Shown here in pieces: positions 147 through 61,225 of a stretch of DNA of 64,000 nt. Under the pieces are notes generated by a model. That model worked only from the letters and a program-made list of their open reading frames with translations, made no database searches and was not told the origin of the DNA. The DNA lies in assembly GCF_000226115.1 (NCBI RefSeq), contig NC_016458.1, positions 6,172,001 to 6,236,000 on the forward strand, in the 5' to 3' direction. The stretch comes from Thermothielavioides terrestris NRRL 8126 (Eukaryota > Ascomycota > Sordariomycetes > Sordariales > Chaetomiaceae). Position 1 is the first letter of the stretch. Every line of letters starts with the position of its first letter. The translations under genes were made by a program, and so were the position numbers.

Positions 147-545
147 ATGGCTAAAGAGGTCCCGCCAAGACTAATTTCGGAGACTGCCGCTTACAAGTAT
201 TTACAATCGCCACGGGGTGAGCGGGGCCGCGACGGGGCCTCGACGACTTCGAGCAACATCAACAACGAACAATCGCAAAGACTCGTTGCAACAACTTTAC
301 GAAATCTCAACCAAATCGAAAAAAAAGAAAACGAAGTTAACCCTCACCCTAACCTTGACCCTCACCCTAACCATAACCCTCACCCTAACCAGCGGGGGGC
401 TGGCGCCGCCCCCCGCACCCCCGGCGAACTAACCCGTGGCTAACCCGTGGCGATAGTGCAAACCCCTTGGCGGTCTTGGCGGGGTACTGACGCTCCATTG
501 CCGACAATTGGCCGAAATTAGTCTTGGCGGGACCTCTTTAGCCAT
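147..545. mobile_element. MITE-like element with 34-bp perfect terminal inverted repeats
   Basis: Positions 147-180 and 512-545 are perfect 34-base inverted repeats (left arm begins atggctaaagaggtcccgcc). The 331-base interior has no convincing coding frame, so this looks like a non-autonomous DNA element. The bases immediately outside the arms do not form an obvious target duplication, although 'ccctgcac' occurs near both flanks. It could be a fragment of a larger inverted-repeat element. Confidence 0.6.
337..390 (+). repeat. Three 18-bp telomere-like tandem units
   Basis: Three consecutive 18-mers of the form (tta/ttg/ata)accctcaccctaacc lie inside the inverted-repeat element. They contain CCCTAA, the complement of the fungal telomere unit TTAGGG, interleaved with CCCTCA. 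This is an interstitial, degenerate telomere-like tract rather than a chromosome end, because genes follow within 1 kb and the tract is short. Confidence 0.7.
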
Positions 546-30983: not shown

Positions 30984-31362
30984 ATGCCTCCTATACTTTC
31001 TAACGACGAAGCGGACTCGCCTCTGCCGTCCGTCGAGGTGGACGAAGACGTCTAATACAGTGATACCCCCTACGAGCCTCTTATACCTACTTCAACTGCT
31101 ATAGCGATAGACGTATAAGGGGAAGATAACGAACTTGAAGATATAGCTATAGAAGTGTAAAGAGAGGAGAACGAAGATAGCGATATAAAGGTTATAGCTA
31201 GTATCTTTATAAAGGAGACTATTCTCAAGGCTATATAAAACTTTCTTAAGTCTACGAAGTATATATAGGACCTACTAAAGTTTAAAGTATATAGCGAGCT
31301 ATAACAATAATAGGACATTAACGTTGATATACCTATTAGCGGTCTATAATATCCATCTATAG
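30984..31362 (+). pseudogene. RIP-killed upstream frame of the Helitron passenger gene
   Basis: From ATG at 30984 the frame begins MPPILSNDEADSPLPSVEVD and continues acidic (GEDNELEDIAIEV, REENEDSDIKV), interrupted by about ten TAA/TAG stops and no TGA, as expected when RIP converts CAA/CAG. It ends near the ATG of the next frame, one base out of register, so the two may have been exons of one gene (a ctatag acceptor precedes 31363) or two genes. I recognise no family. Part of this could be chance, since TAA/TAG dominate all frames in RIPped DNA. Confidence 0.4.
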
Positions 31363-32226
31363 ATGGATCCTTATAACCCTAATAAGTTTTATAATATCAA
31401 CTTTGACTGTACGACTAACCTTGAATCTCTACTAATATAAATTATAGGCAACGATCCTAACGACGGCAAGTATAAATATTGCGACAAAGGTCTAGGCCTA
31501 TATATAAACTACATTATATCGTAGGACAATATAGGTAATAGCTACTATACTAGCTGCTACTATAACTTAGGTAGTACTAGGTACAGCTTTTTCAAGGGAA
31601 GTAGTAAGTATAGTCCTCCTAATATATCTATAATATACTTTGTAACTAATATATATATAACAGAGATAGAGATACCTTGTAAGCGCTATATTACAAAGGA
31701 TCCAACCCCCCCCTCTCCCCCTCTACCTTAGCTAATATCTAAGCTATATAAACATTATACTACGTCTACGAAGCGTAAGTTAGAGCTCAAAGTAGTTATC
31801 TCCTCTAAGTATTTGCGCCCTATAATAGATATATTATCTTCCGTCAGCTCCTAGTAGTTTAGCGACCTATATATACTTTCGTAGCCCGCTACCTATATAA
31901 TAGCAGCTCCTACTATATATTCTATTCTAAGAGATGAGTTTACGCCCTCTATTTATAACGGTCGTTATAGGGCTAGAGAGAAGGCTATACACCTATTGAA
32001 TAACGACCTTGCTACGCCCACCTATTATAGCTCACGTTATATAAGAGAGGATAGACGCTACGCTATATATAGCGAACTTACGAGCCCCGTCAAACACGTT
32101 AACTACTACGTTGAGCTTATTCGTAAGCTCTTTCTACACCTATCTACTAAAGAAGAGCAGACCTTTGTAGAGGCTCTCAAAGATATAGCTAACCTACTTA
32201 ATATATCTATAGCGGACAAACTATAG
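31363..32226 (+). pseudogene. RIP-killed Helitron passenger gene, cysteine-rich
   Basis: A 288-codon frame from ATG 31363 to TAG 32226 with exactly six internal stops, all TAA or TAG and no indel. Each is explained by one C-to-T change in CAA/CAG, the RIP target. It starts MDPYNPNKFYNINFDCTTN. A segment reads KYCDKGLGLYINYIIS, then YYTSCYYNLGSTRYSFFKG, where many Tyr codons (TAC/TAT) probably replace Cys or His, implying a lost CxxC...CxxC...C module. The last 77 codons are fully open (YREDRR-like basic stretch, then HVNYYVELIRKLFLHLS and EEQTFVEALKDIANLLNIS, helical). It runs opposite to RepHel and converges on it. No known function; see the parallel with the copia passenger gene. Confidence 0.6.
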
Positions 32227-32356
32227 AGGAAGGAGATGTGATTAGCGAATATAAGTTATAACGAATCTACTTAATAGGTCTATAAAGGATATACTACGGA
32301 GGAGAGAAACGTATTTATTAGCTATAGGTACAAAGTATTATACATCTAAAGTGTAA

Positions 32357-32512
32357 GATTCTAGAATAGCGTTGTACACCTAGGATACGGGAATCTAAAA
32401 TAGCGTTGTACACCTAGACTATAGGAGTATACAATAGCGTTTAACATAGGTGCAAAGCATTAGTTAGTACATAGTACACCTCGACTACGAGAATCTACAA
32501 TAGCGTTTAACA
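32357..32512 (+). repeat. Degenerate minisatellite at the RepHel/passenger junction
   Basis: Units containing aatagcgttgtacacctag recur near 32365 and 32399, with decayed copies (aatagcgtttaaca) near 32442 and 32500. It fills the gap between the two convergent Helitron frames and may have been their terminator region. Confidence 0.55.
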
Positions 32513-32569
32513 ACCTTACTATAATATTAGTACCTCTAGGTATACAATGTTCGTAAGCTTCCTGCCCTA

Positions 32570-33477
32570 CCCCCCTAAATCCAATAAGTATATATAAACA
32601 TTATAAACATCTATAACCTAAGACATAGCTACGTAAAACTGGCTATAAGAAAATATAGGCTCTTGAGAATCGATACTAATATAAGAAAAAGACTACCCCT
32701 AAGATTTGTTAATAGTTATCGCAAAGTAGAGGCGAATAGGAAACTACCTACGAACAATAATATAAGGAAAGTCCTCCTCTATAGAACTTAATTTAATCTT
32801 TAGAATTATCTACAACTACCTAGCAAAGTCACCTGTTAAAATTCGCCCTTCAATAACGGACGAAGCAAGCTAAGTAACAACTAGCTAAGTCCTATTATAG
32901 AGCCTACTACTAGGGTCAAGGTTTCAAAGTAAAAGAATAAAGGCTCTAACCTTCAAGGTTAGGATAGTAGGTAGAATAGAAGCAAAGTCTAAAGAAAATA
33001 AAAAATTAGAAGATAATATAGAAGCGTTAAGATCCTTGGCGTTAGGAGGGTTTTATACCTCGTTAACAAAGAGATATCGAAATTCCTGACCTAGGATTAA
33101 AGAAATAATAGCCACATTGATAGAGCTTACAGTAGCGTTGCAAAGGCAAAGAATCGCTTAGTTCGTAAACACTGTCGAGTCTATTGTAGTACGCTTAAGT
33201 AGGTATATAAGATAGACCTAATCAACTAACTGCTTCTATATAGAACAAAGTGTAAAGGGGGGGAGGGGGTCAACGGAGCTATAGAAGTGAGGATTGTAAC
33301 TTAGATCCTACAACCAACTTATAAAAGTATAGTTGTTAGTATTAGCTCCCTACACTCGTATATTCTTAGTCAGTTTTTAGACCTATAGCTAAGGCTAGAT
33401 TAGCGAGTTCTATAAATAGGCCTAAACAATATAACACCTATCACCGTTGTAGACAATAGGCAAGATTTATATAAAGT
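32570..33477 (-). pseudogene. Helitron RepHel, C-terminal helicase part (RIP-mutated)
   Basis: The minus strand continues the Helitron helicase exactly where the copia insertion interrupts it: ILPIVYNGDRCYIV just after the insertion point, then NIRV.GANTNNYTFI, TTIDSTVFTN.AILCLCNATV and TLKVRAFILLL.NLDPSS, and finally FAITINKS.G.SFSYIS and FYVAMS.V near 32600-32720, which is the helicase motif VI region (INKSQGQS ... YVALSRVT). Dots mark TAA/TAG stops. Conservation is strong enough to be sure of the family. Non-functional. Confidence 0.88.
33473..33477. other. Copia target-site duplication, left copy (AAAGT)
   Basis: Five bases AAAGT directly before the left LTR, repeated after the right LTR. 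Five-base duplications are typical of Ty1/copia integrases. Confidence 0.93.
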
Positions 33478-33659
33478 TGAGAAGAGCAGCGAAGTGGGGC
33501 CATGCAGGATGCAGAGGCATGTGTATTGAGAGAGGTGCTCCTCTCAAGCTGGGTGGGAGGAGCGCCGAGGTCTATATACATGTGTGGGCAGAGCTGACAT
33601 GTGCCCCCTGAGCGCAGGGAGCCTGGCAGATAGAGTCACGTGTGCACTAGCACGCGACA
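33478..33659 (-). repeat. Copia LTR, 3' copy
   Basis: 182 bases, matching 40855-41036 except one base near the inner edge of the alignment start (tgagaaG versus tgagaaT, plus-strand reading). TG...CA ends. It contains the same TATATAG box in element orientation as the 5' copy. Confidence 0.96.
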
Positions 33660-33669
33660 CACCCCCCAG
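33660..33669 (-). other. Copia polypurine tract
   Basis: On the minus strand CTGGGGGGTG immediately precedes the 3' LTR (TGTCGCG...). A purine tract here primes plus-strand DNA synthesis in LTR retrotransposons. Confidence 0.8.
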
Positions 33670-33739
33670 ACAGACTCTCAGGAGGCTGTCTGTGGAACAC
33701 GCATGCTGGGCACTGACTCTGGAGCTCGCACTGCCAGGC

Positions 33740-34135
33740 GCATTGAACTGTGGCCTCCGGTATTGATCCCACCATTGCGCGCAGCCGCCGCCATTGTGCA
33801 AGTTGTCCGCGCGCCATTGTGTACGCGTTGTGGCGCGTGCGTTGGCGAATTGCGTGCTGCGCTGAATGCGGTCAGACCCAGGGGCGCCAAAGTTGACATT
33901 CAGGGGCGCTGTCGTTGGCATTGTTGCGAGCGCCATTGATCGCATTGTGCGCAGTTCCCAATTGCGCAGCGCGTTCCATCCCCATCCTCCATTCAGGCGC
34001 GTATCTTGAATCGTGCCGCCTCGATTGTGGGTGCAGGTTGCGCAATTGAGCATTGCGATCATTCGCATGTGTGCCATTGTGGCCTTTGTTGCCCAACGTC
34101 TTGAATGCACGCCCACCATTGCTACCCATTGTTGC
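33740..34135 (+). promoter_or_regulatory. CATTG-dense segment upstream of the passenger gene
   Basis: Eleven CATTG pentamers (several as gCCATTGtg) occur on the plus strand within about 395 bases, and none of the reverse, CAATG. One match per kilobase would be expected by chance. The segment lies between the 3' LTR/polypurine tract and the passenger gene's start, so it may be its promoter or a binding array. CATTGT resembles HMG-box sites. The minus strand is open for 214 codons here (34188-33544), but the translation is Met/Ala/Arg-rich and looks like a by-product of the repeated pentamer. Confidence 0.5.
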
Positions 34136-34197
34136 ATTCGCGCCATGCAGACAATACCGCAGTGCCGCAGGCCGGTCGATGGCTGCACTCCTGGAAG

Positions 34198-34204
34198 TAT
34201 TTAA
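34198..34204 (+). promoter_or_regulatory. Possible TATA element of the passenger gene
   Basis: TATTTAA lies 103 bases before the passenger gene's ATG, directly after the CATTG segment. A CAA-rich unstructured leader (caacaacaacaacatcaac) precedes the ATG. An atg/gtgagt...ctgcag pair at 34207-34254 could alternatively be a 5' UTR intron. Confidence 0.4.
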
Positions 34205-34306
34205 TCATGGTGAGTGCGCCTCAAACCATCTCCCGAACTCTTCCTCTGCAGACCGCGAGCAACAGCAGCAGCATCAGCAACAACAACAACATCAACAACA
34301 ACAACC

Positions 34307-35220
34307 ATGCCGTCCTCTGCTCGCCTCGCCGCTCTCGAGAAGGCCCGCGCCGCCAAGGCGGCCAAGAACAAGCCTCCCCCGCTCCCGGCCACCCCCACCA
34401 AGGCTGGCGCTGGCGCCAGCAAGAAGTGAGCACACCACAATCTGCCCGACTGGCGCGGCGCGTACATCCGCGTCTCTGACACTTGCAGCAGGACCCCCGC
34501 CACGCCGAAGACCCCCTCCAAGCGTGCGGCGCCCCCCTCCTCCTCCTCCTCCTCTTCGGAGGATGAGGAGGAGGAGGGCGCCCTGAGAGAGCAGCCCTGC
34601 CTGGGTTGCCTGAAGTCCGCCATGCGCGGCAAGAGCTCTGGGGAGTGCCGGGAGGCCCCCGGCAAAGCGGCCCGGTGCGCGCGCTGTGCGCGCGGCAAGA
34701 AGTGTCGCTCCATGTAAGTCTGTCAGCACAGTTGCAAGGCGCACGGTACTGATGAATCAGCCCCGCGAGTGTGCTCCCCGCCGCCAAGCACTTCCTGGCC
34801 CTGATGCAGGGGCGCCAGGAGCCCAAGGCCAATCTCGTGAGTACAAATGAAAAGACAAAGGAAAAGAGCTAGTCTGACTGTGTGTGGTAGGACCAGAAGA
34901 CGCTGCGCGCCACCCTGCGCGCCCTCCTCGCCATGGAGTGCGAGGACGCCGACGCCGAGGATGACGACGACGATGACGACGAGCGCGCGCCCGCGCCCGC
35001 CAAGGGCAAGGGCAAGGGCAAGGCAAAGGCGGCCGCGCCCACCAAGAAGTCCAAGAAGGCCAAGAAGGCCAAGAAGGAGGAGAGCGAGGAGGAGGACGAG
35101 GATGAGGACGAGAGCGAGGAGGAGGCTGCTCCGGGCTTTGACCCGGAGGCGCTGGCGCGTGGTGTGGCGGCGGCGGTGCTGGCCGCCATGACTCCCAAGA
35201 AGAAGAAGGGTGGCAAGTAG
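34307..35220 (+). CDS. Copia passenger gene: six-cysteine acidic/lysine-rich protein
   Basis: Four exons: 34307-34425, 34489-34713, 34761-34836 and 34891-35220, 249 residues. Introns are 63, 47 and 54 bases with GT...AG ends and ctgac-type branch points; the first acceptor is a tandem cagcag. N-terminus MPSSARLAALEKARAAKAAK is basic, then a Ser/Glu stretch. The module PCLGCLKSAMRGKSSGEC plus RCARCARGKKC spans residues 76-112 with spacing C-x2-C-x12-C-x9-C-x2-C-x5-C, likely zinc-binding. The second intron falls just after it. Exon 4 alternates Asp/Glu runs with lysine-rich KKSKKAKKAKK, so nuclear or nucleic-acid-associated location is plausible. It lies inside the LTR element, opposite and convergent with gag-pol, with stops 87 bases apart. 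I do not recognise the family or function; similar Cys modules occur in uncharacterised fungal proteins. Confidence 0.78.
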
Positions 35221-35307
35221 TTCCGCGTTGTTGTTTGTTGTTTCGCGGGTGCGGGCACCCCCCAGTCTGTTTTGCGCCGGCGTGCGCTCCTGTGTTTAGT
35301 TTGTTTT

Positions 35308-38300
35308 TTACTCAAGCCTTGCGTTCCTGTCCCCCTGATCGTCTCCCTGCACCATATGACGCACATCCTGCAGGTTGAGGAGCTCCCTGAAGTGCTCGAA
35401 CTTCTGGCGAGTCAACACCTTCGTAAGCCCATCTGCAGGCATCTCAGCAGTTGGCAAGTACGCGACCTCGAAAGATCCCTTCGCGTGTTCCTGACGCAGC
35501 CACATGTTGTGGATGTCAACATGACGCAGGCGAGTGCTGATGCGTTCGTTCTCTCCCACCACGAGCCGGATGGTCTGCGTGTTGTCACAGAACACAGTCC
35601 AAGGCACACCCAGCTCAAGTTGCAGGTCGCTGAGGAAACGCTTGAACGCCATTGTCTCCCGCGCTGCGGTGGACAGAGCGAGGAGCTCCGCCTCCGTAGA
35701 CGAGGTGGTGACTGTATCTTGGCGCGCAGCCTTCCAATGAACGAGCCCACCGAACAGAGAGATGAGATAGCCTTGTGACGACCTGCGCGTATCAGGATCA
35801 TCCGCATGCGACGCGTCCCCTGCGATGAGCAAGATTTGCGTGGGAGCAGCATCCTGCGGCACACCCCCGAACTGAATAGCGAGGAAGCGCGTGCCAAACA
35901 GGTAGGAGATTGCATGCTTTGCAGCATCAATGTGTGTCCCCGAGGGGTTCGTCAGGAAGTGCGAGAGCAACGATGCCGGGAACGCGACCTCCGCGCGCAG
36001 TACGACCGCGGCGTAGAGTAGCGATCCAACAAGCTCCTGGAACAGCCTGATCTGCGCTCGAGTGGCAGTGCCAGTGAACTTGCGGAGTTCCATTACAGGG
36101 AGAGGGATGCTTGGAAAGGTGATTTGATCCGCGAGACCGAAGCGCTTCGCAATCTTCTCGATGTACTGGTCAAGGCAGAGCCAGATCTTGCGTTGCGCGC
36201 GGTCGCGGATCACCCTGATGCCCAGGAACCAAGCCACGTCCCCCTTTTCGTGCACTTCGTACTTCGCTTTCAGAGCGTCGATGATCCTCTGAGCTGTCTC
36301 CGCGTGGTCTCTGTGGTAGAAGACTAGGTAGTCGTCCACGTAGAACAGCACGAGCACGCGCCGTTGGCGATCGAAGAACAAGCATGGCTCCTCAGGCGAA
36401 GCTGTGAGGCCGAGCTTCCGAAGTGTGCCGGAGAACTCTCGGTACCAGAGCAACGGAGACTCTCGCAAGCCGTACAGAGCTCTCTGCAGTTCCACAAGAA
36501 ATCCAGGCTCTTCGAACCCCTCAGGCATCTCGCAAACAACACCCTCAGGCAGGTCCGCATTCAAGAACGCCTGCGCTACGTCGAACTGCTTGACCTCAAG
36601 ATCAAACTGCGCGGCGATAGCCATCATTGTGCGGAACGAGCGCGCTGCGAGTGTGGCTGCATAAGTGCTTTGCAGAGTAGTGAGCTCCTGAAGGTCGCCT
36701 CGAACGCAGATGCGAGACTTGCACTTCTCGAGGTTGCCATTCTGATCGAACTTGTAGACGAAAACCCACTTCAGAGGGAGTGGTCTTCCTTTGAAGGTCT
36801 CGCGCCGAATCTTGCGCCATGTCTTCCTGTTGACGAGATTGCGAATCTCTTCCTCAGCCGCTTTGATGAACTCGGGCCCTTGAGGGTGGTTGGCGAGATC
36901 CCTCCAGCGCTTAGGAAGCTTGGCGAGGTCGTCAAAATGCACCCGGGGCCTGCTTGGCGTTGCCCCAGGACGCGCGTCACGATGTTGGCGGACTGCCGCC
37001 GCGAAAACCGCATGCAATGTGCGGTGCTGGATGCTGTCGCCCTCCTGCAGAGCGATTACAGGGTCATCCAAAAATGTGTGGCTGAACGAATGCCACGCGT
37101 GCTGATCTGGTACGTCGATGCTCTCCTCATGGTACATGGGGGCTGCGAAGCACACCAGACCGCCGCTTCCGCCTGCACCGCCGCCGGGAGACTGTCTACG
37201 GATCCGTCTTGAGTAACGAGTTGGTGGTCCGTATACCTTGCGCACGTACTTGCGCTTCTCCCTCGCTGGCGTGGCTGCGGGTGTTCCAGAATCAGGCTGA
37301 GAACCATGGTTTGAGGCGTCTTCCCAGTCGTCTGGAGCCTCTGGCTGATCGCCAGGGCGGTCGACCTCCTCTTCACTGCTAGGAGTATCGACTGCGGCAG
37401 CACTTGCCGTCGTGCTGCCCTGGCTGGCACTCCTAGTTGTGCCGCCAGCGACGCTGCTACTGGCGTCTCCGATAACTGCATCAGGGGCCTCCGATGATGC
37501 AGTTCCCACCGGTCTGCTGTCACTGCTAGCACCGTGATCAGCAGGGGGGCCGCTCCCTCCAAAACCGTCCGGGCGTTCCTGGCGCGGCTCCGGTGTTGGT
37601 TCTGGAGTGTAAAGACCACCAGTGGGCTCCTCACCCGAACTCTGGCCGCGATGCTCGAGTACTTCCGCACCCCCCAGACAGGATGGAGAGTGGGGAGGAG
37701 CCTGCCCTTCCGGTTCCCGTTCAGTCACACCCCCCAGATGTCCTGGAGAGCCGGGAACCGTCACTGGGTCTTCATGGGCATCTGTAACTCCGAACGGCAC
37801 TGCCTCGGCGTCCCGAGGCTCTATGGGGAGTTCGATGAGCTCAACAACCTTTCTGGCGACTGCCACCGATTGAGCATCAAGCTGCTCCTCTCCCTCCCGG
37901 TAGAACGTGCGTTCGTCAAAGGTCACGTTGCGCGTTGTGATGACCTTCCTGAGTTTCGGTACCCAGATGCGGTAAATGTTGGACGCCCTGTATCCAACAA
38001 GATACCCGATGTGCGCTCTGGGCTTGACCTTCCCAGCACGCCTCTCAATCCCCTTTTCGCGTTCCTTCGTCAGCGGGTACGCTCGGCAGCCGTACGCATA
38101 AACGCCGCCCCAGTTAGGGCGCAGGTCGGCAGTCAGGGAATGCACGAGACCGGGCTGATACCAGCGAAACCAGTGTCTGAACCAAGAGTCGAGCACCTCG
38201 TTCGGTGAGCGGTAGTTGCGAGCGCGACTTGGGCTTATGCCGTGCAAGTACGCAGCTGCAACCGTCGACTCTGGCCACAGGTTCTGAGGAAGTCCGGCGC

Positions 38301-40677
38301 CCGTGAGCATTGCAAGGCTCTTTGTGATAAGTTCTTTGCCTGCGCGTTCTGAACCGCCGTTGGGCTCCTTGGTATCCGAAGGCGTAACCTCCAAGTCGAT
38401 GCCCTGCTCCTGCGCCCAGAGCTCGTACGCTGTGTATCCCTTGATGCCAATGACACTGGTGTCGCCATCCTGCCTGATCTTGCAGATGGGCAGCCCGAAT
38501 TGGCGTTTCACCCAGCGTTCGAAGCGGACGAGCTCATCGTACACACTGTCGTGCGTCTTGCGTATGAGTGGAGTCGCGAAAAGCTTCCCACTGTACTCGT
38601 CCTTGATGACCAGCAGCCAGTTCGAGCCGTCAAGTGCCCTCGGAAAGTCGAACAGGTCCCAAGAGACCCTCCAAAATGGGCGTGGTGACGGCTTCGATGG
38701 TGGGCGGCGCGAAATAACCTGTTCCGCGTATGCCTGCGCGCATACCTCGCATTCCAGTCTGCGAGGCCCGCGAATCCGCACACCTCTGGCGTTCAAGACG
38801 AGATGTTCCAGCGCCTCTGAACTCAGATGACCAGATCTGATGTGCCAGAGAGCAGCTGGGTCTTCTCTCTCTGGGAGCGGGTCCTTGGAGGGCCTGCTCC
38901 TCCCAAAGTTCTTCACAACTGCAGCGCTCAAAGTCACAAGTCCGGCAAAGCTTCTGGGGAGCACCCGAAGGGCATCAGAGTAGGAGGAAAGAGCATTGTA
39001 TTGCAAGAAGGTCAGGTTGAACTTCTCGACCAGCTGCCTGAGTACAATACTCTTCTCCAAAGTTCCCCAACGCAGCGTGCAATCCAGACCGCAGTACCAA
39101 GCGCCCTGCGCTCGAAGGCGTCTCTCAGAGACAATGTTGACGTGAAAGCCCTCGACGACAGCAACGTTGTCTATGACAAGGTCCTCAGTGTTCGGGCCGC
39201 GCGCGCCGTTCAAAACGTTCTTGATGATCCATTTGCCGCGGCCAGAGATTGGGAAGGATGTGGTGCCTGCCTCAACAGTCTCACCGCTCGTCTTGACGAA
39301 CGTGCCAGGGACAAGGAGAGCCCTGTCATTGACGAGATTGACCGCTCCACAGTTGTCAAACAGAATGCACTTGCTGAGCGGGTGTGGGCCAAACTCGAGA
39401 GATGCGAACACGCCACGCGCTCCTTCGAGCTCGCTTGCGATCGCTGGGTCGATGACAGCGTGCACCTGGAGCGCTCCCGGAAATGAAGGACCCGCGCCAC
39501 TATTGGAACTAGTGGTCTTGGCGTTTGACGATGCGTTCTGGATCTTCCAACCGAGCTTCTGGAGCTCCACTCGAAGGTCGTTCCAGCGCTCCTTGGCGAA
39601 TCGTTGGCGCACTGCATTCACCGCGTCGTTTGGGAGCGTCACGCCGTTCAGGGATTCCCCTGTCAGAGCGTACCGAAGTTGCCGACATTCCGAGGGAAAC
39701 CACCAGTGGCGAAAAGTCTTCGGCTTGCACGGGCAGTCGCGGTTCTTCTTGCGCTTCTGACTGCCCTTCTGACCGTTCTGCGCTCCTGGAAGCACGGGGT
39801 AGGCTCCAGGCTTCGGGTGGACCACCGCTTCAGCCTGGAGGATCGCCTCGAGTGAGAGAGCCAAGTCGAGAAGGGTTGGTCCTTTGCCGCCGAGCTTCTC
39901 AGTCACACTGATATCCTTCAGCATGCGAGTCGCCCACTCTGGATCCAAGCGTCTCTGCACAGTCTTGAGGAATGTGGTGACGGCTGTTGCGTCGGTGACT
40001 GCGGCGATGTTGGCCGCCCTTGCGCGGTGGAGGACCGACATGTACTCGAGAATCCAGGTCCTGGGTTCGACGCCGCTCTGGCTGCCTCTGGCAAGGACAG
40101 TTGCGTACTCCTCGGCAAGCGCAGTGAAAGTAGCGCTGTTGGAGGGTGCGATAATCTTGCGCAGCGTCTGTATAAACCCGCGTGTGCCGGTGACGTTCTC
40201 GGCCTCCATGATGTCGTGTGCGGTGTGTGCGTAGCGGTCGCTGACAGACACGTTGATCATCTCGCGGAGCTTGTTGACGGCACGGAACGCCGCAGTGTCG
40301 ATGGCGGACTTCGAGAACGCCTCGCACAGCTTGAGGAATTCACGGCGGATCTCCTCCTCAGTAGGATTGGTTGACTGAGGTTCCTCGCCACGGGTGGTGG
40401 GATCGGCTGCCTTCCAGGCTTGCAGTGCAGTGTGCCACGCCTGAAGATGGCGGTCCTGGACCGCCTGACGTGCCGCACCCTGGGTGGGCTGCACAGGAAG
40501 GCCGAGCATCTCAGCCTCGGTGGCGAGCTCGGTGTCTGGGTCGATGATGTGCCAGACACGCAGGTTGTTGGCCTCTTGGCGAACAGCAGAGATCCATCTT
40601 GGCCAGTCCTTGGGGCTGTCGAGGGTTGGAAGCGCTGCAACAGCAACGGTGACGGTTTTCTCAGTTTCGAGTGTCAT
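35308..40677 (-). CDS. Copia Gag-Pol polyprotein
   Basis: One frame of 1789 residues without frameshift or internal stop. Gag is residues 1-300, followed by a basic patch and a variant zinc knuckle, C315-x-C317-x6-H324-x6-C331 (CPCKPKTFRHWWFPSEC). Protease: KCILFDNCGAVNLVND near 437-450, with DNCGA where copia proteases usually have DSGA. Integrase: HHCC zinc site H612, H617, C643, C646, then catalytic residues in WDLFDF (D674), RQDGD (D737) and GGSERAG (E777). Reverse transcriptase about 1285-1530 with QFDVAQAFLN and YVDD at 1446-1449. RNase H: AGDASHADD, SSTEAELLAL, FCDNTQ and a closing RHVDIHNMWLR. A proline/serine/acidic linker (about 950-1170) joins integrase and RT. All enzymatic motifs look intact. 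Gag and Pol share one frame, so their ratio must be set by processing or splicing. Confidence 0.96.
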   Translation of the reverse strand: MTLETEKTVTVAVAALPTLDSPKDWPRWISAVRQEANNLRVWHIIDPDTELATEAEMLGLPVQPTQGAARQAVQDRHLQAWHTALQAWKAADPTTRGEEPQSTNPTEEEIRREFLKLCEAFSKSAIDTAAFRAVNKLREMINVSVSDRYAHTAHDIMEAENVTGTRGFIQTLRKIIAPSNSATFTALAEEYATVLARGSQSGVEPRTWILEYMSVLHRARAANIAAVTDATAVTTFLKTVQRRLDPEWATRMLKDISVTEKLGGKGPTLLDLALSLEAILQAEAVVHPKPGAYPVLPGAQNGQKGSQKRKKNRDCPCKPKTFRHWWFPSECRQLRYALTGESLNGVTLPNDAVNAVRQRFAKERWNDLRVELQKLGWKIQNASSNAKTTSSNSGAGPSFPGALQVHAVIDPAIASELEGARGVFASLEFGPHPLSKCILFDNCGAVNLVNDRALLVPGTFVKTSGETVEAGTTSFPISGRGKWIIKNVLNGARGPNTEDLVIDNVAVVEGFHVNIVSERRLRAQGAWYCGLDCTLRWGTLEKSIVLRQLVEKFNLTFLQYNALSSYSDALRVLPRSFAGLVTLSAAVVKNFGRSRPSKDPLPEREDPAALWHIRSGHLSSEALEHLVLNARGVRIRGPRRLECEVCAQAYAEQVISRRPPSKPSPRPFWRVSWDLFDFPRALDGSNWLLVIKDEYSGKLFATPLIRKTHDSVYDELVRFERWVKRQFGLPICKIRQDGDTSVIGIKGYTAYELWAQEQGIDLEVTPSDTKEPNGGSERAGKELITKSLAMLTGAGLPQNLWPESTVAAAYLHGISPSRARNYRSPNEVLDSWFRHWFRWYQPGLVHSLTADLRPNWGGVYAYGCRAYPLTKEREKGIERRAGKVKPRAHIGYLVGYRASNIYRIWVPKLRKVITTRNVTFDERTFYREGEEQLDAQSVAVARKVVELIELPIEPRDAEAVPFGVTDAHEDPVTVPGSPGHLGGVTEREPEGQAPPHSPSCLGGAEVLEHRGQSSGEEPTGGLYTPEPTPEPRQERPDGFGGSGPPADHGASSDSRPVGTASSEAPDAVIGDASSSVAGGTTRSASQGSTTASAAAVDTPSSEEEVDRPGDQPEAPDDWEDASNHGSQPDSGTPAATPAREKRKYVRKVYGPPTRYSRRIRRQSPGGGAGGSGGLVCFAAPMYHEESIDVPDQHAWHSFSHTFLDDPVIALQEGDSIQHRTLHAVFAAAVRQHRDARPGATPSRPRVHFDDLAKLPKRWRDLANHPQGPEFIKAAEEEIRNLVNRKTWRKIRRETFKGRPLPLKWVFVYKFDQNGNLEKCKSRICVRGDLQELTTLQSTYAATLAARSFRTMMAIAAQFDLEVKQFDVAQAFLNADLPEGVVCEMPEGFEEPGFLVELQRALYGLRESPLLWYREFSGTLRKLGLTASPEEPCLFFDRQRRVLVLFYVDDYLVFYHRDHAETAQRIIDALKAKYEVHEKGDVAWFLGIRVIRDRAQRKIWLCLDQYIEKIAKRFGLADQITFPSIPLPVMELRKFTGTATRAQIRLFQELVGSLLYAAVVLRAEVAFPASLLSHFLTNPSGTHIDAAKHAISYLFGTRFLAIQFGGVPQDAAPTQILLIAGDASHADDPDTRRSSQGYLISLFGGLVHWKAARQDTVTTSSTEAELLALSTAARETMAFKRFLSDLQLELGVPWTVFCDNTQTIRLVVGENERISTRLRHVDIHNMWLRQEHAKGSFEVAYLPTAEMPADGLTKVLTRQKFEHFRELLNLQDVRHMVQGDDQGDRNARLE

Positions 40678-40839
40678 CTTGAAGCAAACTGAGGTGTGCT
40701 GCGTTGTTCAGACTGAACGATGGGGGTGATGTGAACTTGTGGGAGTTGTTGACGATCGAGAAAACTGGAAGTGGTTGTTGGAGAAAAGAAGAAGGATGGC
40801 CCCAACTGGGCTACACCGCTGTTATGAGTGTTGTGCGCG

Positions 40840-40854
40840 AACCGGGCTCATAAC
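40840..40854 (-). other. Primer binding site, half-tRNA initiator-Met type
   Basis: Directly inside the 5' LTR the minus strand reads GTTATGAGCCCGGTTC. GTTATGAGCCC is complementary to GGGCTCATAAC, the anticodon arm of fungal initiator tRNA-Met. Priming from an internal, cleaved half of this tRNA is known for Drosophila copia and relatives. Confidence 0.8.
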
Positions 40855-41036
40855 TGAGAATAGCAGCGAAGTGGGGCCATGCAGGATGCAGAGGCATGTG
40901 TATTGAGAGAGGTGCTCCTCTCAAGCTGGGTGGGAGGAGCGCCGAGGTCTATATACATGTGTGGGCAGAGCTGACATGTGCCCCCTGAGCGCAGGGAGCC
41001 TGGCAGATAGAGTCACGTGTGCACTAGCACGCGACA
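40855..41036 (-). repeat. Copia LTR, 5' copy
   Basis: 182 bases with TG...CA ends, 181/182 identical to the 3' copy. It drives the element's RNA leftwards through gag-pol. Confidence 0.96.
40949..40955 (-). promoter_or_regulatory. TATA box in the 5' LTR
   Basis: TATATAG on the minus strand in the middle of the LTR. It is the only TATA-like site in the LTR and is positioned to start the retroelement RNA about 30 bases further on. Confidence 0.6.
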
Positions 41037-41041
41037 AAAGT
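41037..41041. other. Copia target-site duplication, right copy (AAAGT)
   Basis: Identical to 33473-33477. Reading the flanks with only one copy of these five bases restores the Helitron helicase frame (ILGRDF followed by ILPIVYNGDR). Confidence 0.93.
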
Positions 41042-44000
41042 CCCTTCCCAATATAACTAGAACCCCTTTAAACAAGCTATCGTAGTCGTAAATATCTTGT
41101 AATATACGGTCAATAGCCTTAAAGTAGTAGCGATACTATATTGGAACCTCGTCCTAGATAATAAGCTTGGTGTATTGTAAAAGAGCTACGAGCTGAGTGT
41201 TCTTCTAGACTACGTAAGTGCTAGCGTCTATAATGTCGATCAGAATCTTAAAACGGCTATAAGAAGTGTGGCTACCGTCGAGAAGGAGAGCTATAAGGCT
41301 AGAAGAAGCAACGTAAAGGATAATATGCCCTTGAGAACGGAAAAAAGAAGAAAGACAACGATATAAAAAGGTTTTACTAGTCCTACTAGCGCCTTAGATG
41401 AAAAAATAAGCCGTTTTAGGGTATAAGTCGACTATAGCTATAATCTCTGTAAAGAGTATAGCTTAGCTAGCGTTTAACCGAGATCAAATGCTTATAAATA
41501 TAGCCTCCTACTCTTGATGGTCGTAACTAAGCTCCGTTTATAAAAGGGGGTTCTACTCTACCTCCTCCTAGCGGTGATGGACAGCTAGTAAACCAAAGTC
41601 GGTTAAACACTTATCGCTATCAACTAGTAGCTAATTCAATAAAAAGAGCCCAAAGTCGAAATATAGTTCCTCTAAGTCTAGTGGGATATCTGTAAAACGC
41701 TCGAGGCGACGTAGAAGATCGTTGTAAAAAGAATTATAAAACTGTAACTATAGTGCTACCGGATCTACAATGTCGCTAGAAAGGAGGCTAATAGTAAAAA
41801 GCTTCTAAAGGGTATACCCTGTTTACTAGCCTATAGCTTTAGTAAAGTATATAATCTAGCTTTAGTCGGAGTTAAGTAGGCTAGCTACAACGTAAGTAGC
41901 TCGGAATATAGGATATTCGTAGCTATCTATAGTCCGTAAATAGGCAAACGACTAAGCGCCTAGAACTGAATAGAGGAGAAGACGAAGAAAATATTGCTTA
42001 CCTACAGTAGGAGGGATGTAATATATACGCCTAATAGTAGTGCTGTAAATATAGGGCTTCTACTCCTATAACTGCCTGTCCTAGACGAAGTACAAAGGAA
42101 AATCGATATAGAGGATATTATAAGCATCCTTATAGGCTACGTTGTAAGTAAAAAACCCTTCTAGCTCTATAGTTCTACGTTCTAAAGCTTCTGTAAACTC
42201 TTTAGGAGAGCTATCTACCTAGAAAACGATGTATTGCTGATACTTGAGATAGACTAGAAGGCGATAAACAGGAGGGTACTCGCGATAGGTATAGAATTTA
42301 AAGAGCTATATAACCGCCTCCGCTAGACTAATGTACCGACATTGTAAATAGGTGTCAACCTCGTTGAGCTAGTTAGCTATAGAGAGTTGAACTGTTGACT
42401 GATCAGTCTCTTTGTAAATATATTTGTATATATACTTAATAGACTTTATAGATACGTAAATCTCTATATTGATGTAGGCAATGTATTTGCGAAAGAGGTA
42501 AGGGTTATAGGGCACAACCTAACGGTTGTCAAGTTGTACCTTATAGCCGTTGACTTTATAAGTAACTGTTTGCCTAGTGTCTCGACGGCGATAAATGGGA
42601 TACCCATTTTCTAGGATGACAGTCTCCTCTATAAACGCCTTTAGAAAGCGCTTAGAACAGCTCGCAACCCCTATACGTAGGTCCTGAACTATGCAAAGAG
42701 AGGCAGGGTTATTAGAACTATATAGCCTATAAATTATATTGTTTATAATAATAGTCTGTAACTAGCTATTAGGATCCTCTACCTCTATTAGAAACTTAGC
42801 CTAGATAATATAGTCGACGTTAGTAAGTATAAGGAATAGACGTATAGACTTTTGTGAAAGGAAAAGCAAGATATAGCAATATAGGAGCCTACGCTTCTAG
42901 TATTTAATAGTCTAAACAATACCTATAAACTCCTTAAATAAGTTGCTATACTATAGCTTATAAAGAATAGCTTAGTACTTAAGCTCGAAAATATAGCCAA
43001 CAATGTCAGGGCGGTCCGCTATAGTCTAGTTTAGAAGAAGCTTTCGCTAGATCTCTACCTAGTTTAGGTTGGCTATAACTGTAATAAACAGTGTAGGATA
43101 ACCTAGCTTATAGACGATAGCTATTGAATCCTAATAGCACTGAGCAATGAAGTATAGGCCTCTAATATAGCTTGTAAGTAGGACAATTCGCTATCTAAGC
43201 TCATAAGTATCGTTATCACCTAGTCGTAGCTAGTCCTATACTCCTTAATATAGTTCTATATACAATTCCTTCTAGTTATTACGAATCTAATATAGCTTTT
43301 GCTAATCGCTAATAGCCTAGAGGTCTATTAGAAACTATTAAAACAACTAACGAAAAAGGAAAGGCGTTTAGCTATAACCTATATAAGGATATAATAGATA
43401 TTGACACTACTGCCTAAACTCAATACTTAGTTGAGTATAGCCCTACCTTTGGCCATTATAGAGCTATAAGCCCTAGTAGAAGCTAAGATCTCTAAATAGA
43501 AACATCAAAGGATAGGCTAATAGAAGATAGGCAGGGTAATACGGGTAAATATAATGCTAGGCCTATACAAAGCCGTTATCCGAGCGGTGTATAAGAACAA
43601 TATTACGAAAATCAGGCTCTAAATTCTCCTCTAGAATAAGAATAGCCACCTTATCTACTATTGGTAGGTTCTTATAGCGATGGTCGTAACTATAGCTATA
43701 ATCTATAACTAAACGTAACTAAGGTATAATCGTAACTTACGATATAGCTAGGCTCTAAAGAAAGCGCTCTTTCGTAGTCAAGTAGATACGAATAAAGGGG
43801 TTATATCGATAGAGAAAGTCCGTAAAGCGCAATATAAAATTGTAATTAGAGTCTATAAAGAAGAAAGTTCAATATATAACAGTAGCCTATAGATTATAAA
43901 AAAAAAGCTAAGTATACCGAGGAGGCTTACTAAGCACCTTTGTAAAAGGGCTAGCAATGTAATATAGGGCGCTATAGATCTGAAAATCTATAGGCCTAGC

Positions 44001-44250
44001 ACTATGAACATTGTAAGTAGTTTGATTTATAGAGATGGAAGTGAATATAAAAACCGAGTTATAACGACGAAGATTATTGCGAAAATAGGACCCTCGAGGA
44101 TCTTATATATATAACAGATAGTCGAGGAAGTCTAGAAGACGATAGGCTAGAGGGAAAGAAACGTCGCCCTATAAGCAATAGAAGCCGAAAGTAGGATTCG
44201 TAGCGATAGAATTCTATACTATAGAAGAGTATTAGCTAAAGAAGATAAAT
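41042..44250 (-). pseudogene. Helitron RepHel, N-terminal, Rep and Walker-A parts (RIP-mutated)
   Basis: Minus-strand reading with many TAA/TAG stops. An N-domain (DFQIYSALYYIASPF, NIVLIHRSDNGF, YPLMFLFRDLSFY) is followed by LFQQFLIDLQAISD, SIAIVYKLGYPTLFITVIAN and the Rep catalytic motif at 42896-42864, which now reads KRRLLYCYILL where active Helitrons have GLPHxH. Both histidines became tyrosine (CAC/CAT to TAC/TAT). Then come VVPYNPYLFRKY (42518-42483) and a helicase start with FFI.GASRTSKTFLYR (41407-41361), a Walker A whose glycines became Arg/Ser. AYVASSSLIALLLDG-like and VPI.YRYYFKAIDRILQD blocks follow up to the copia insertion. Clearly inactive. Confidence 0.9.
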
Positions 44251-45040
44251 GACAGATATAGAAATATACCAATAGACGCTTATCTATCCAATGTAATGTA
44301 CTATACTCGGTATACTTAATATCCATTAGGCTAAGATTATATAAAGCGATGGTTATACTACCTAAATCTAGGTTAGCAACAGTCTACGAAGCACTAATAA
44401 AGAGAGCAACGTAACCTATAAGAGGCAACTAGCTAGTCGGAGTAGAAGGTTCGGTAGTATTCTAAGGTATATTATAGGCCAAGGAACGACGACGCTAATT
44501 TTATATAGTAGTATAAGCAATATAAGAAGTGTAAAGAGCTCCATTAGAACGTATATAAAACTGAGAAAGCGGCTTATACTGATAGCAACGACTATAGAAC
44601 GTAGTCTACGAACTAGGTAAACGACGAAGAGGAGGCATTTTAGCGACGGGAAGCTCGAAAGGAACTGAGTAGAAAGGAGAAAAATAGGAGAGAGAGAAAT
44701 AGTAAAAGAAGCGGAAAGGAAGAAAAGGGGAAGCAACAAAGGTGTAACAAGGGTATAAGTGAGATGCGGAAGGGTCGAAAAGGGGTAGCAATAGGGGTAT
44801 TAGTACGTAAGCTAATAGGAGAGGAGTACGAAAGTCACTAACAGGTCTGTACCCTGTAAGGAGGGGGGCCCGAAAATCACTAACAGGTCTGTACCCTGCA
44901 TTAGTTATTTGTTAAGCTTAAAAGGAGGAGTGCAAGGCCAAAGAGGTGGAGAGCAGTAACAATTAGTTAAAGAAGACCCCTGTTTTATAGCCAAACGGAG
45001 GATCGCACTACCTGCCTCATTGTGTAGTATATATATTAGA
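44251..45040. other. Helitron 5' region
   Basis: No recognisable protein. Two 28-base direct repeats (44829-44856 and 44871-44898, one G/A difference, ending acaggtctgtaccctg) flank a G-run. On the minus strand a TATAAAA-like box lies near 44980, about 60 bases inside the proposed 5' end, and could be the RepHel promoter. A plus-strand Lys/Arg/Glu-rich frame at 44500-44870 is probably chance. Confidence 0.55.

Positions 45041-61176: not shown

Positions 61177-61225
<49 letters not shown>
61177..61225 (+). repeat. Homopolymer A49
   Basis: 49 consecutive adenines. It could be the tail of a short retroposed sequence, but I see no target duplication or element body upstream, so a plain homopolymer is the safer description. 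Confidence 0.9.

What the first reader, a model, noticed from the sequence alone, without database searches (positions are those of the whole stretch)
33478..41036. A young, intact copia retrotransposon carries a spliced gene on its antisense strand
Seen: 182-bp LTRs with one mismatch, AAAGT target duplications, PBS, PPT and an open gag-pol. Between gag-pol and the 3' LTR a plus-strand gene of four exons encodes 249 residues with a six-cysteine module, and converges on gag-pol with 87 bases between stops. Retroelement genomes normally lose introns at each RNA cycle; these survive because the element's RNA is the opposite strand, where the splice signals are not read. Antisense extra ORFs are known in some plant LTR elements; I do not know of a described fungal copia family with this one. 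It could be a real element component (regulator, chaperone or anti-silencing factor) rather than a stray host fragment.
Basis: partly seen in the sequence, partly recalled or inferred. Interest (0 to 1): 0.88.

Follow-up and report, generated by a model that had tools for sequence, protein, structure and literature searches.

The report
Fungal retrotransposon with spliced antisense gene
A fungal jumping element of the copia type carries, on its opposite strand, an intron-containing gene that its other copies and a second, related element family share and that bears the mark of natural selection, so it looks like a working part of the element and not a stray host fragment.

Summary
Confirmed and strengthened. 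Window 33478-41036 is a young Ty1/copia element with an open gag-pol. Antisense, between gag-pol and the 3' LTR, lies a four-exon gene for 249 residues with a six-cysteine module. In the same 36.9-Mb genome all 39 RT-bearing family copies found (19 near-identical, 20 diverged) carry it. The diverged copies are RIP-mutated (82-99% of differences are C>T/G>A). With RIP-type changes masked, the rest favour synonymous changes in the spliced frame (nonsynonymous/synonymous 0.41 of expectation; other plus frames 1.5; spacer 0.9-1.0; gag-pol 0.19). A second copia clade (RT 49% identical as read) has the Cys module on the antisense strand in 41 of 44 RT copies, with introns before and after it in the same phases as introns 1 and 3. 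No other copy of the gene was found. So it is probably an old, selected accessory gene whose introns survive reverse transcription because they are antisense to the element RNA. Its molecular function and expression are untested. Antisense genes at this site are known in gypsy elements, including fungal Boty (brtn); my searches found none described for a fungal copia. New variant of a known kind.

The parts
33473..33477 (.). target-site duplication AAAGT, left
   Evidence: sequence
33478..33659 (-). 3' LTR of the element (left in the window)
33660..33668 (-). PPT-like stretch with six G next to the 3' LTR
   Evidence: sequence
34140..34205 (+). slowly changing block and TATA-like TATTTAAT (34198-34205), possible promoter of the antisense gene (inferred)
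   Evidence: RIP-masked rate 0.011 at 34140-34199 against 0.056 before and 0.035 after; two blocks inside the gene (34500-34559, 35040-35099) are about as low (0.015)
34260..34306 (+). CAA-rich leader before the ATG
34307..34425 (+). exon 1 of the antisense gene
   Evidence: no constraint seen (ratio 1.57 on 13 changes)
34426..34488 (+). intron 1, phase 2
   Evidence: an intron of the same phase precedes the module in 6 of 7 second-clade loci
34489..34713 (+). exon 2, holds the six-cysteine module
   Evidence: ratio 0.17
34714..34760 (+). intron 2
   Evidence: not seen in the second clade
34761..34836 (+). exon 3
   Evidence: ratio 0.43 on 17 changes
34837..34890 (+). intron 3, phase 0
   Evidence: intron after the module in 7 of 7 second-clade loci, phase 0 in the 6 where it was computed
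34891..35220 (+). exon 4, acidic and basic tracts, stop TAG
   Evidence: ratio 0.46
35308..40677 (-). gag-pol, first Met to stop
40843..40854 (-). PBS-like stretch next to the 5' LTR
   Evidence: tRNA assignment recalled
40855..41036 (-). 5' LTR of the element (right in the window)
41037..41041 (.). target-site duplication AAAGT, right
   Evidence: sequence

Best explanation
The plus-strand gene at 34307-35220 is a real, long-standing accessory gene of a fungal Ty1/copia lineage. Shown by sequence: it sits between pol and the 3' LTR, antisense to gag-pol, in every RT-bearing family copy found; it changes under coding constraint in the spliced frame; and a similar module, antisense and flanked by introns of the same phases, is in a second copia clade of the same genome. 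Inferred: it is transcribed as its own mRNA from a promoter upstream of 34307 and spliced, while the genomic RNA, made from the other strand, carries the introns only as their complement, so splicing does not remove them before reverse transcription. Least certain, about one in two: the product, with its cysteine module and strongly acidic and basic tracts, is a nuclear nucleic-acid- or chromatin-binding protein that regulates the element's transcription or integration, as proposed for the antisense proteins of Grande, Retand and HTLV.
For: 39 of 39 RT-bearing copies of the family have the gene downstream on the opposite strand, 36 of them within 2 kb. Exons 2 and 4 are open in all 19 near-identical copies, among them the copies whose gag-pol frame is split or short. 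RIP-masked N/S ratio 0.41-0.42, reached by 0 of 20,000 draws; 0.34 for changes shared by four or more copies; other plus frames 1.51 and 1.53, spacer 0.89-1.00. Introns change faster than exons (0.078 against 0.043). Second clade: Cys module in 6 of 7 loci, scores 118-127 against shuffled maxima 92-98 and 75-96 in 11 control tiles; 41 of 44 RT copies have it downstream on the opposite strand; introns of matching phase before and after it.
Against: The substitution test does not separate the plus strand from one minus-strand frame that shares third positions (0.47; changes silent only on plus 10 of 88, only on minus 14 of 149); introns and the limits of the signal decide it. Exon 1 shows no constraint. 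The gene as a whole changes faster than gag-pol (0.043 against 0.028). The younger RIPped copies alone give no significant constraint. The exon-4 link to the second clade was noticed in the alignment before it was tested, and a free search with the exon-4 piece found nothing. Two matching phases alone would occur by chance one time in nine. The nuclear-regulator role rests on composition and analogy.
Confidence: 0.8

Rival explanations
1. A host gene was captured by one element and is carried passively by the present burst, with no role for the element.
For: The near-identical copies are too young to show selection by themselves (eight read copies, the window's included, differ at three positions). 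GC3 of the gene is 0.89 against 0.67 in gag-pol, so its codon use differs from the element's.
Against: It is also in all 20 old RIPped copies, shows coding constraint among the older ones, has a counterpart in a second clade, and no other copy was found in the genome. A link to the host DUF3716 family failed.
Confidence: 0.08
2. The selected thing is mainly the antisense RNA: convergent transcription over the 3' end makes dsRNA that tunes copy number, and the protein is secondary.
For: The gene converges on gag-pol with 87 bases between stops and lies wholly within the genomic RNA's complement. PMC7264820 proposes this as a possible role for plant cases.
Against: An RNA role does not predict third-position bias confined to the spliced exons nor retained splice sites. 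It can coexist with a protein role.
Confidence: 0.08
3. The protein is an anti-silencing factor that let the present burst escape RIP.
For: 19 near-identical, un-RIPped copies coexist with many RIPped ones.
Against: All 20 diverged family copies, and the second-clade copies with the module, were RIPped although they carried the gene. A burst without an intervening sexual cycle explains the young set as well. Effects on other silencing routes are untested.
Confidence: 0.06

Closest known systems
brtn, antisense gene of gypsy-type Boty-like elements of Botrytis cinerea (Zhao et al. 2011, Virology; not read, seen as cited in PMC8365987 and PMC7264820)
   Same: fungal LTR element with an additional antisense gene; PMC7264820 lists it with the pol-to-3'LTR antisense cases
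   Different: a gypsy and not a copia element (gypsy by the name BcGypsy1 in PMC8365987); brtn sequence and exon structure were not available to me, so homology is untested
plant antisense accessory ORFs (aORF-3R): Grande gene23, RIRE2, Retand ORF4/TRP28, PvRetro13 (PMC7264820 parts 1-2 read; PMC11963269 passages)
   Same: antisense, between pol and 3' LTR, kept in most copies of a family; some products nuclear; Grande's has its own promoter
   Different: plant elements; Pfam finds no TRP28 or SMC domain here; the passages seen do not describe conserved introns
HBZ of HTLV-1 (seen only as mentioned in PMC11963269; that it is a spliced bZIP gene is recalled)
   Same: antisense gene in the 3' part of a retroelement with a nuclear product
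   Different: a retrovirus with its antisense promoter in the 3' LTR (PMC7264820); here a Cys module and no Pfam match
fungal copia clades FunCo1-27 and GalEa (PMC5445492, outline, abstract and passages)
   Same: Pezizomycotina copia elements with TG...CA LTRs; 5-bp target duplication and one large ORF as in GalEa
   Different: main text of that survey has no occurrence of 'antisense' or 'intron'; fungal GalEa lacks a PBS and has QTDD, while this element has a PBS-like stretch and YVDD (read)

Membership tests
Ty1/copia LTR retrotransposon | two LTRs with TG...CA ends and short target duplication | tested here: met
Ty1/copia LTR retrotransposon | copia-type reverse transcriptase (RVT_2), integrase-side domains before RT in one frame | tested here: met
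   RVT_2 at residues 1297-1521 and SH3_retrovirus at 855-927, both above cut-off; gag_pre-integrs at 605-650 below it; no integrase-core hit was listed
fungal GalEa (FunCo8) | no PBS; QTDD in RT | tested here: not met
   PBS-like stretch; YVDD in the frame; definition from PMC5445492
antisense accessory ORF between pol and 3' LTR (aORF-3R) | antisense, between pol and 3' LTR | tested here: met
antisense accessory ORF between pol and 3' LTR (aORF-3R) | present in most copies of the family and conserved | tested here: met
   39 of 39 RT-bearing copies; constraint
antisense accessory ORF between pol and 3' LTR (aORF-3R) | transcribed, nuclear product (as in Grande) | not tested
   no expression or localisation data
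brtn (Boty) | sequence homology to BRTN | not testable with these tools
DUF3716 (PF12511) | significant match to the profile | tested here: not met
   no Pfam hit; against a profile of seven host members 1.6 bits, reached by 239 of 2000 shuffles and 436 of 2000 cysteine-fixed shuffles; hhalign probability 7.5%
fungal Zn2Cys6 cluster | profile match and C-x2-C-x6-C...C-x2-C-x6-C-like spacing (spacing recalled) | tested here: not met
   spacing here is C-x2-C-x12-C-x9-C-x2-C-x5-C (positions); no Pfam hit
HBZ-type antisense regulator | antisense transcript whose nuclear protein acts on LTR transcription | not tested
   no expression data

The most novel reading that the evidence does not exclude
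Fungal copia elements have an ancient, HBZ-like antisense regulator whose spliceosomal introns have been inherited through reverse transcription since before two now well separated element clades split: a natural case of introns living stably inside a retroelement, with a protein that controls the element's own expression or copy number in the nucleus.
Probability: 0.4. Interest if true: 0.85.

Novelty: new variant of a known kind. Interest (0 to 1): 0.72.

Why it matters
Antisense accessory genes are a recurrent but functionally open feature of plant LTR elements, Boty and some retroviruses. Here is a fungal copia case with clear introns, recent intact-looking copies, many dead older ones and a second clade for comparison, in a genome where RIP marks the dead copies and can be masked. 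It makes two questions testable: what these antisense proteins do, and how introns survive inside a retroelement.

Tried and rejected
Captured-host-gene reading: no host paralogue found. DUF3716 origin: the order of cysteines is alike, but scores are no better than shuffles. A purine/pyrimidine DNA comparison of the gene with second-clade element L029 gave nothing (z 1.8); only the RIP-tolerant protein comparison did. A short exon-4 piece found nothing in a free search of the second clade; it ranked high only at the position given by the intron, and that match had been noticed by eye before the test. A minus-strand coding reading was weighed: over exons 2 and 4 it fits about as well as the plus strand (0.31 and 0.44 against 0.17 and 0.46), but its signal stops in intron 1, exon 1, the leader and the gap between stops. 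One search's separate 'ex3' row used a wrong frame; one search corrects it. The first splice join was one base off; one search corrects it. Relatives in viral contigs: none for an RT piece or an 86-residue gene piece. Paper search on DUF3716: the ten listed of 15,532 do not hold that term.

Limits: copy counts are lower bounds (score only candidates; one search scored 131 of 180). Eight of the 19 near-identical copies were read in full, one of them the window's own. The constraint test used 12 older copies as the main set and the eight younger RIPped ones apart (8 changes in the gene; 3 synonymous, 5 not; P 0.23); unaligned and gapped positions were left out, indels were not analysed, and it is not a full codon model. 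In one search, L019 gave no splice data and L028 only intron 1. Calling ranks 1-42, 54 and 59 'second clade' was my reading of where paired rows end; 4 of the 41 pairs lie 8.4-9.4 kb off, presumably across insertions; three of the 44 have no module hit. The family at 27-34% RT identity was not read. Branch and host names (tRNA-Met, Thermothielavioides terrestris) are recalled.

Papers: PMC7264820, parts 1 and 2 of 3; PMC11963269, 12 of 16 places; PMC8365987, five passages; PMC5445492, outline, abstract and 12 of 23 places; all others as search listings only (PMC5408684 and PMC8220671, which hold 'additional ORF' and 'antisense', were not opened). That a fungal copia with an antisense gene is not in print rests on the searches alone.

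Full report
What is there. The element at 33478-41036 has 182-bp LTRs differing at one position, AAAGT on both sides, LTR ends TG...CA, a PBS-like and a PPT-like stretch, and one open gag-pol frame on the minus strand. Pfam finds RVT_2 and the retroviral SH3 domain above cut-off. The plus-strand gene has exons 34307-34425, 34489-34713, 34761-34836 and 34891-35220; its three introns have typical fungal-looking signals, and its stop lies 87 bases from the gag-pol stop. The product is 249 residues, pI 9.1, with 50 K+R, 41 D+E and a module C-x2-C-x12-C-x9-C-x2-C-x5-C. No Pfam family reaches its cut-off and no PDB sequence matches an 86-residue piece.

Where it comes from. The window lies in a 36,912,256-base genome of six contigs. 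Size and contig number fit Thermothielavioides (Thielavia) terrestris NRRL 8126; that is recalled, and one paper search did not confirm it.

Copies of the same family. A DNA search scored 18 full-length near-identical copies; protein searches with exon 4 and exon 2 each found 19. Of 40 LTR hits scored (of 90 candidates) 37 are identical to the window's left LTR and three are at 99%, so the burst is very recent. The eight copies held in full, one of them the window's, differ at three positions in all. Four copies are 22 bp longer and have a split gag-pol frame, and one on C3 has a shorter frame; exons 2 and 4 of the antisense gene are open in all 19. Twenty further, diverged matches to exon 4 pair one to one with 20 diverged RT matches, so 39 of 39 RT-bearing copies have the gene downstream on the opposite strand, 36 within 2 kb and three at 8-9 kb. 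I fetched all 20 diverged loci; each holds pieces of gene and pol in the window's order and orientation, some cut short or interrupted.

RIP. In those 20 copies 82.5-98.9% of the scored base differences from the window copy are C>T or G>A, mainly at CpA and CpG. The lowest shares are in copies of which only short stretches aligned (L022 165 of 200, L020 191 of 231). Eight copies (L009, L010, L012-L017) have 16-27 other differences; twelve (L011, L018-L028) have 35-203 and form an older set. In the copies that align over the splice sites, the core GT and AG dinucleotides differ only by RIP-type changes, except the first AG of the NAGNAG acceptor in L027; a few neighbouring positions show other changes (L016, L021, L022, L027 and a T>G beside acceptor 2 in seven copies).

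Selection. I masked RIP-type changes and classed each remaining distinct change in the older set by its effect on the window codon. In the spliced gene 109 changes gave 44 synonymous and 65 not (one a stop), against 23.7 and 85.3 expected from the same change types: ratio 0.41. The simulated draws that reached it were 0 of 20,000 (ratio 0.42 there, stops apart). Changes shared by four or more copies give 0.34, P 0.0004; gag-pol gives 0.19 and 0.13. The other plus frames give 1.51 and 1.53, the upstream spacer 0.95, 0.89 and 1.00. By exon the ratios are 1.57, 0.17, 0.43 and 0.46, so exon 1 shows no constraint and the Cys-module exon the most. Introns change faster than exons (0.078 against 0.043 per aligned site), but the gene as a whole changes faster than gag-pol (0.028). 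The eight younger RIPped copies are too alike to test (8 changes, ratio 0.46, P 0.23).

Which strand. One minus-strand frame of the joined exons shares third positions with the gene and scores 0.47. Changes silent only on the plus strand are 10 of 88 possible, only on the minus strand 14 of 149, so the changes alone do not settle it. The minus-strand signal is absent in exon 1 (1.09), intron 1 (1.37), the leader (1.71) and the gap between stops (0.88), and would need two unconnected minus-strand frames, whereas the spliced plus-strand gene explains exons, introns and phases together.

A second clade. An RT search of the genome lists 131 scored rows: 43 for family A (four copies give two rows each) and 88 others. 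The upper part of these is a clade 37-49% identical as read to the window RT, all with stop codons. For L029 identity lies between 49% as read and 73% if RIP-type changes are allowed (16% in shifted controls); its LTR shows no significant similarity to the window's (z 1.4). I read one element (L029) and six 3' regions (L030-L035). A comparison that lets T or A in the copy stand for C or G finds the Cys module on the strand opposite pol in 6 of 7 loci (scores 118-127; maxima of 25 shuffled queries each 92-98; z 6.4-10.1). Eleven RIPped pol tiles reach 75-96 and three family-A positives 206-219. L035, whose far half is unrelated to the others, has none. Searching the genome with the module as read from L030 gave 45 rows; of the 88 RT rows 41 have one downstream on the opposite strand, 37 of them at 1.14-1.50 kb, and these fall in ranks 1-42, 54 and 59 (41 of 44). 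The other 44 rows, at 27-34%, have none, though a diverged, RIPped module could be missed.

Introns of the second clade. A GT...AG-type intron follows the module in 7 of 7 loci (phase 0 in the six where it was computed), and one precedes it in 6 of 7 (phase 2 in all six); L032 and L029 each have an RIP-type change at one acceptor, which my pattern allowed. These are the phases of introns 3 and 1 of the window gene; distances to the module differ, and phase alone would agree by chance one time in nine. Placed directly after the second clade's intron 3, the first 16 residues of the window's exon 4 rank 1 to 3 among about 1,500 positions in all seven loci. I had noticed that match by eye first, so this is not a blind test. 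The middle intron is not seen in the second clade.

How it most likely works. Because the introns lie on the strand opposite to the genomic RNA, splicing does not remove them there and reverse transcription copies them intact; this follows from established biology, and the introns kept in both clades are what it predicts. A slow-changing block at 34140-34199, a TATA-like motif and a CAA-rich leader suggest the gene's own promoter. The protein's make-up and the precedents (Grande's antisense gene has its own promoter and a nuclear product; PMC7264820) make a nuclear regulator or nucleic-acid chaperone the likeliest role, at about one in two. It is untested. A shield against RIP is unlikely, since the RIPped copies carried the gene.

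What is known. Antisense genes between pol and the 3' LTR are described for plant elements (PMC7264820, PMC11963269) and for Boty of Botrytis (brtn; Zhao et al. 2011, seen only as cited in PMC8365987 and PMC7264820). The large survey of fungal copia elements, PMC5445492, has no occurrence of 'antisense' or 'intron' in its main text. I found no described fungal copia with such a gene in the searches; protein databases of fungi could not be searched. I therefore file it as a new variant of a known kind: an antisense accessory gene, here in fungal copia, with introns.

Noticed in passing
G000:C5:765610-773190, C2:8398770-8406350, C1:7732217-7739797, C1:4573216-4580796: Four near-identical copies are 22 bp longer and have their gag-pol frame split within RT at the same place, which suggests that a copy with broken pol was multiplied with proteins from others.
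   Followed up: partly
G000:C3:552108-559667: A near-identical copy one base longer (7560) whose RT lies in an 817-residue frame in place of 1799; not read.
   Followed up: no
G000:C1:9630560-9630741, C1:4908027-4908208, C1:4384547-4384728: LTR matches identical to the window LTR without a partner in the scored list, so probably solo LTRs; the list scored 40 of 90 candidates.
   Followed up: no
window 34939: A T/G difference inside exon 4 divides the near-identical copies: 6 of 19 match the window's exon 4 fully and 13 are at 99%; T/G at 34939 was read in the copies held in full.
   Followed up: partly
window 34210-34251: A GTGAGT...CTGCAG stretch in the leader upstream of the ATG could be a short leader intron.
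   Followed up: no
window 31001-33000 and 41001-45000: AT-rich stretches (35-39% GC against about 58% around them) on both sides of the element, probably older RIPped repeats into which it inserted.
   Followed up: no
G000:C5:955716-985954: Two near-identical copies in opposite orientation flank an old RIPped copy (L025) within 30 kb, which looks like a local insertion cluster.
   Followed up: no
L035 (G000:C3:174141-175741): A second-clade copy whose 3' half is unrelated to its relatives and lacks the Cys module, though it keeps the intron that follows it.
   Followed up: partly
window 338-390: A short TAACCC-type array, variable, at an internal chromosome position.
   Followed up: no
window 61177-61225: An uninterrupted run of 49 A.
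   Followed up: no
G000, for example C2:5521190-5521369: Host family DUF3716, whose Cys order resembles the element's module, has ten matches above cut-off in this genome; no significant similarity to the module.
   Followed up: yes
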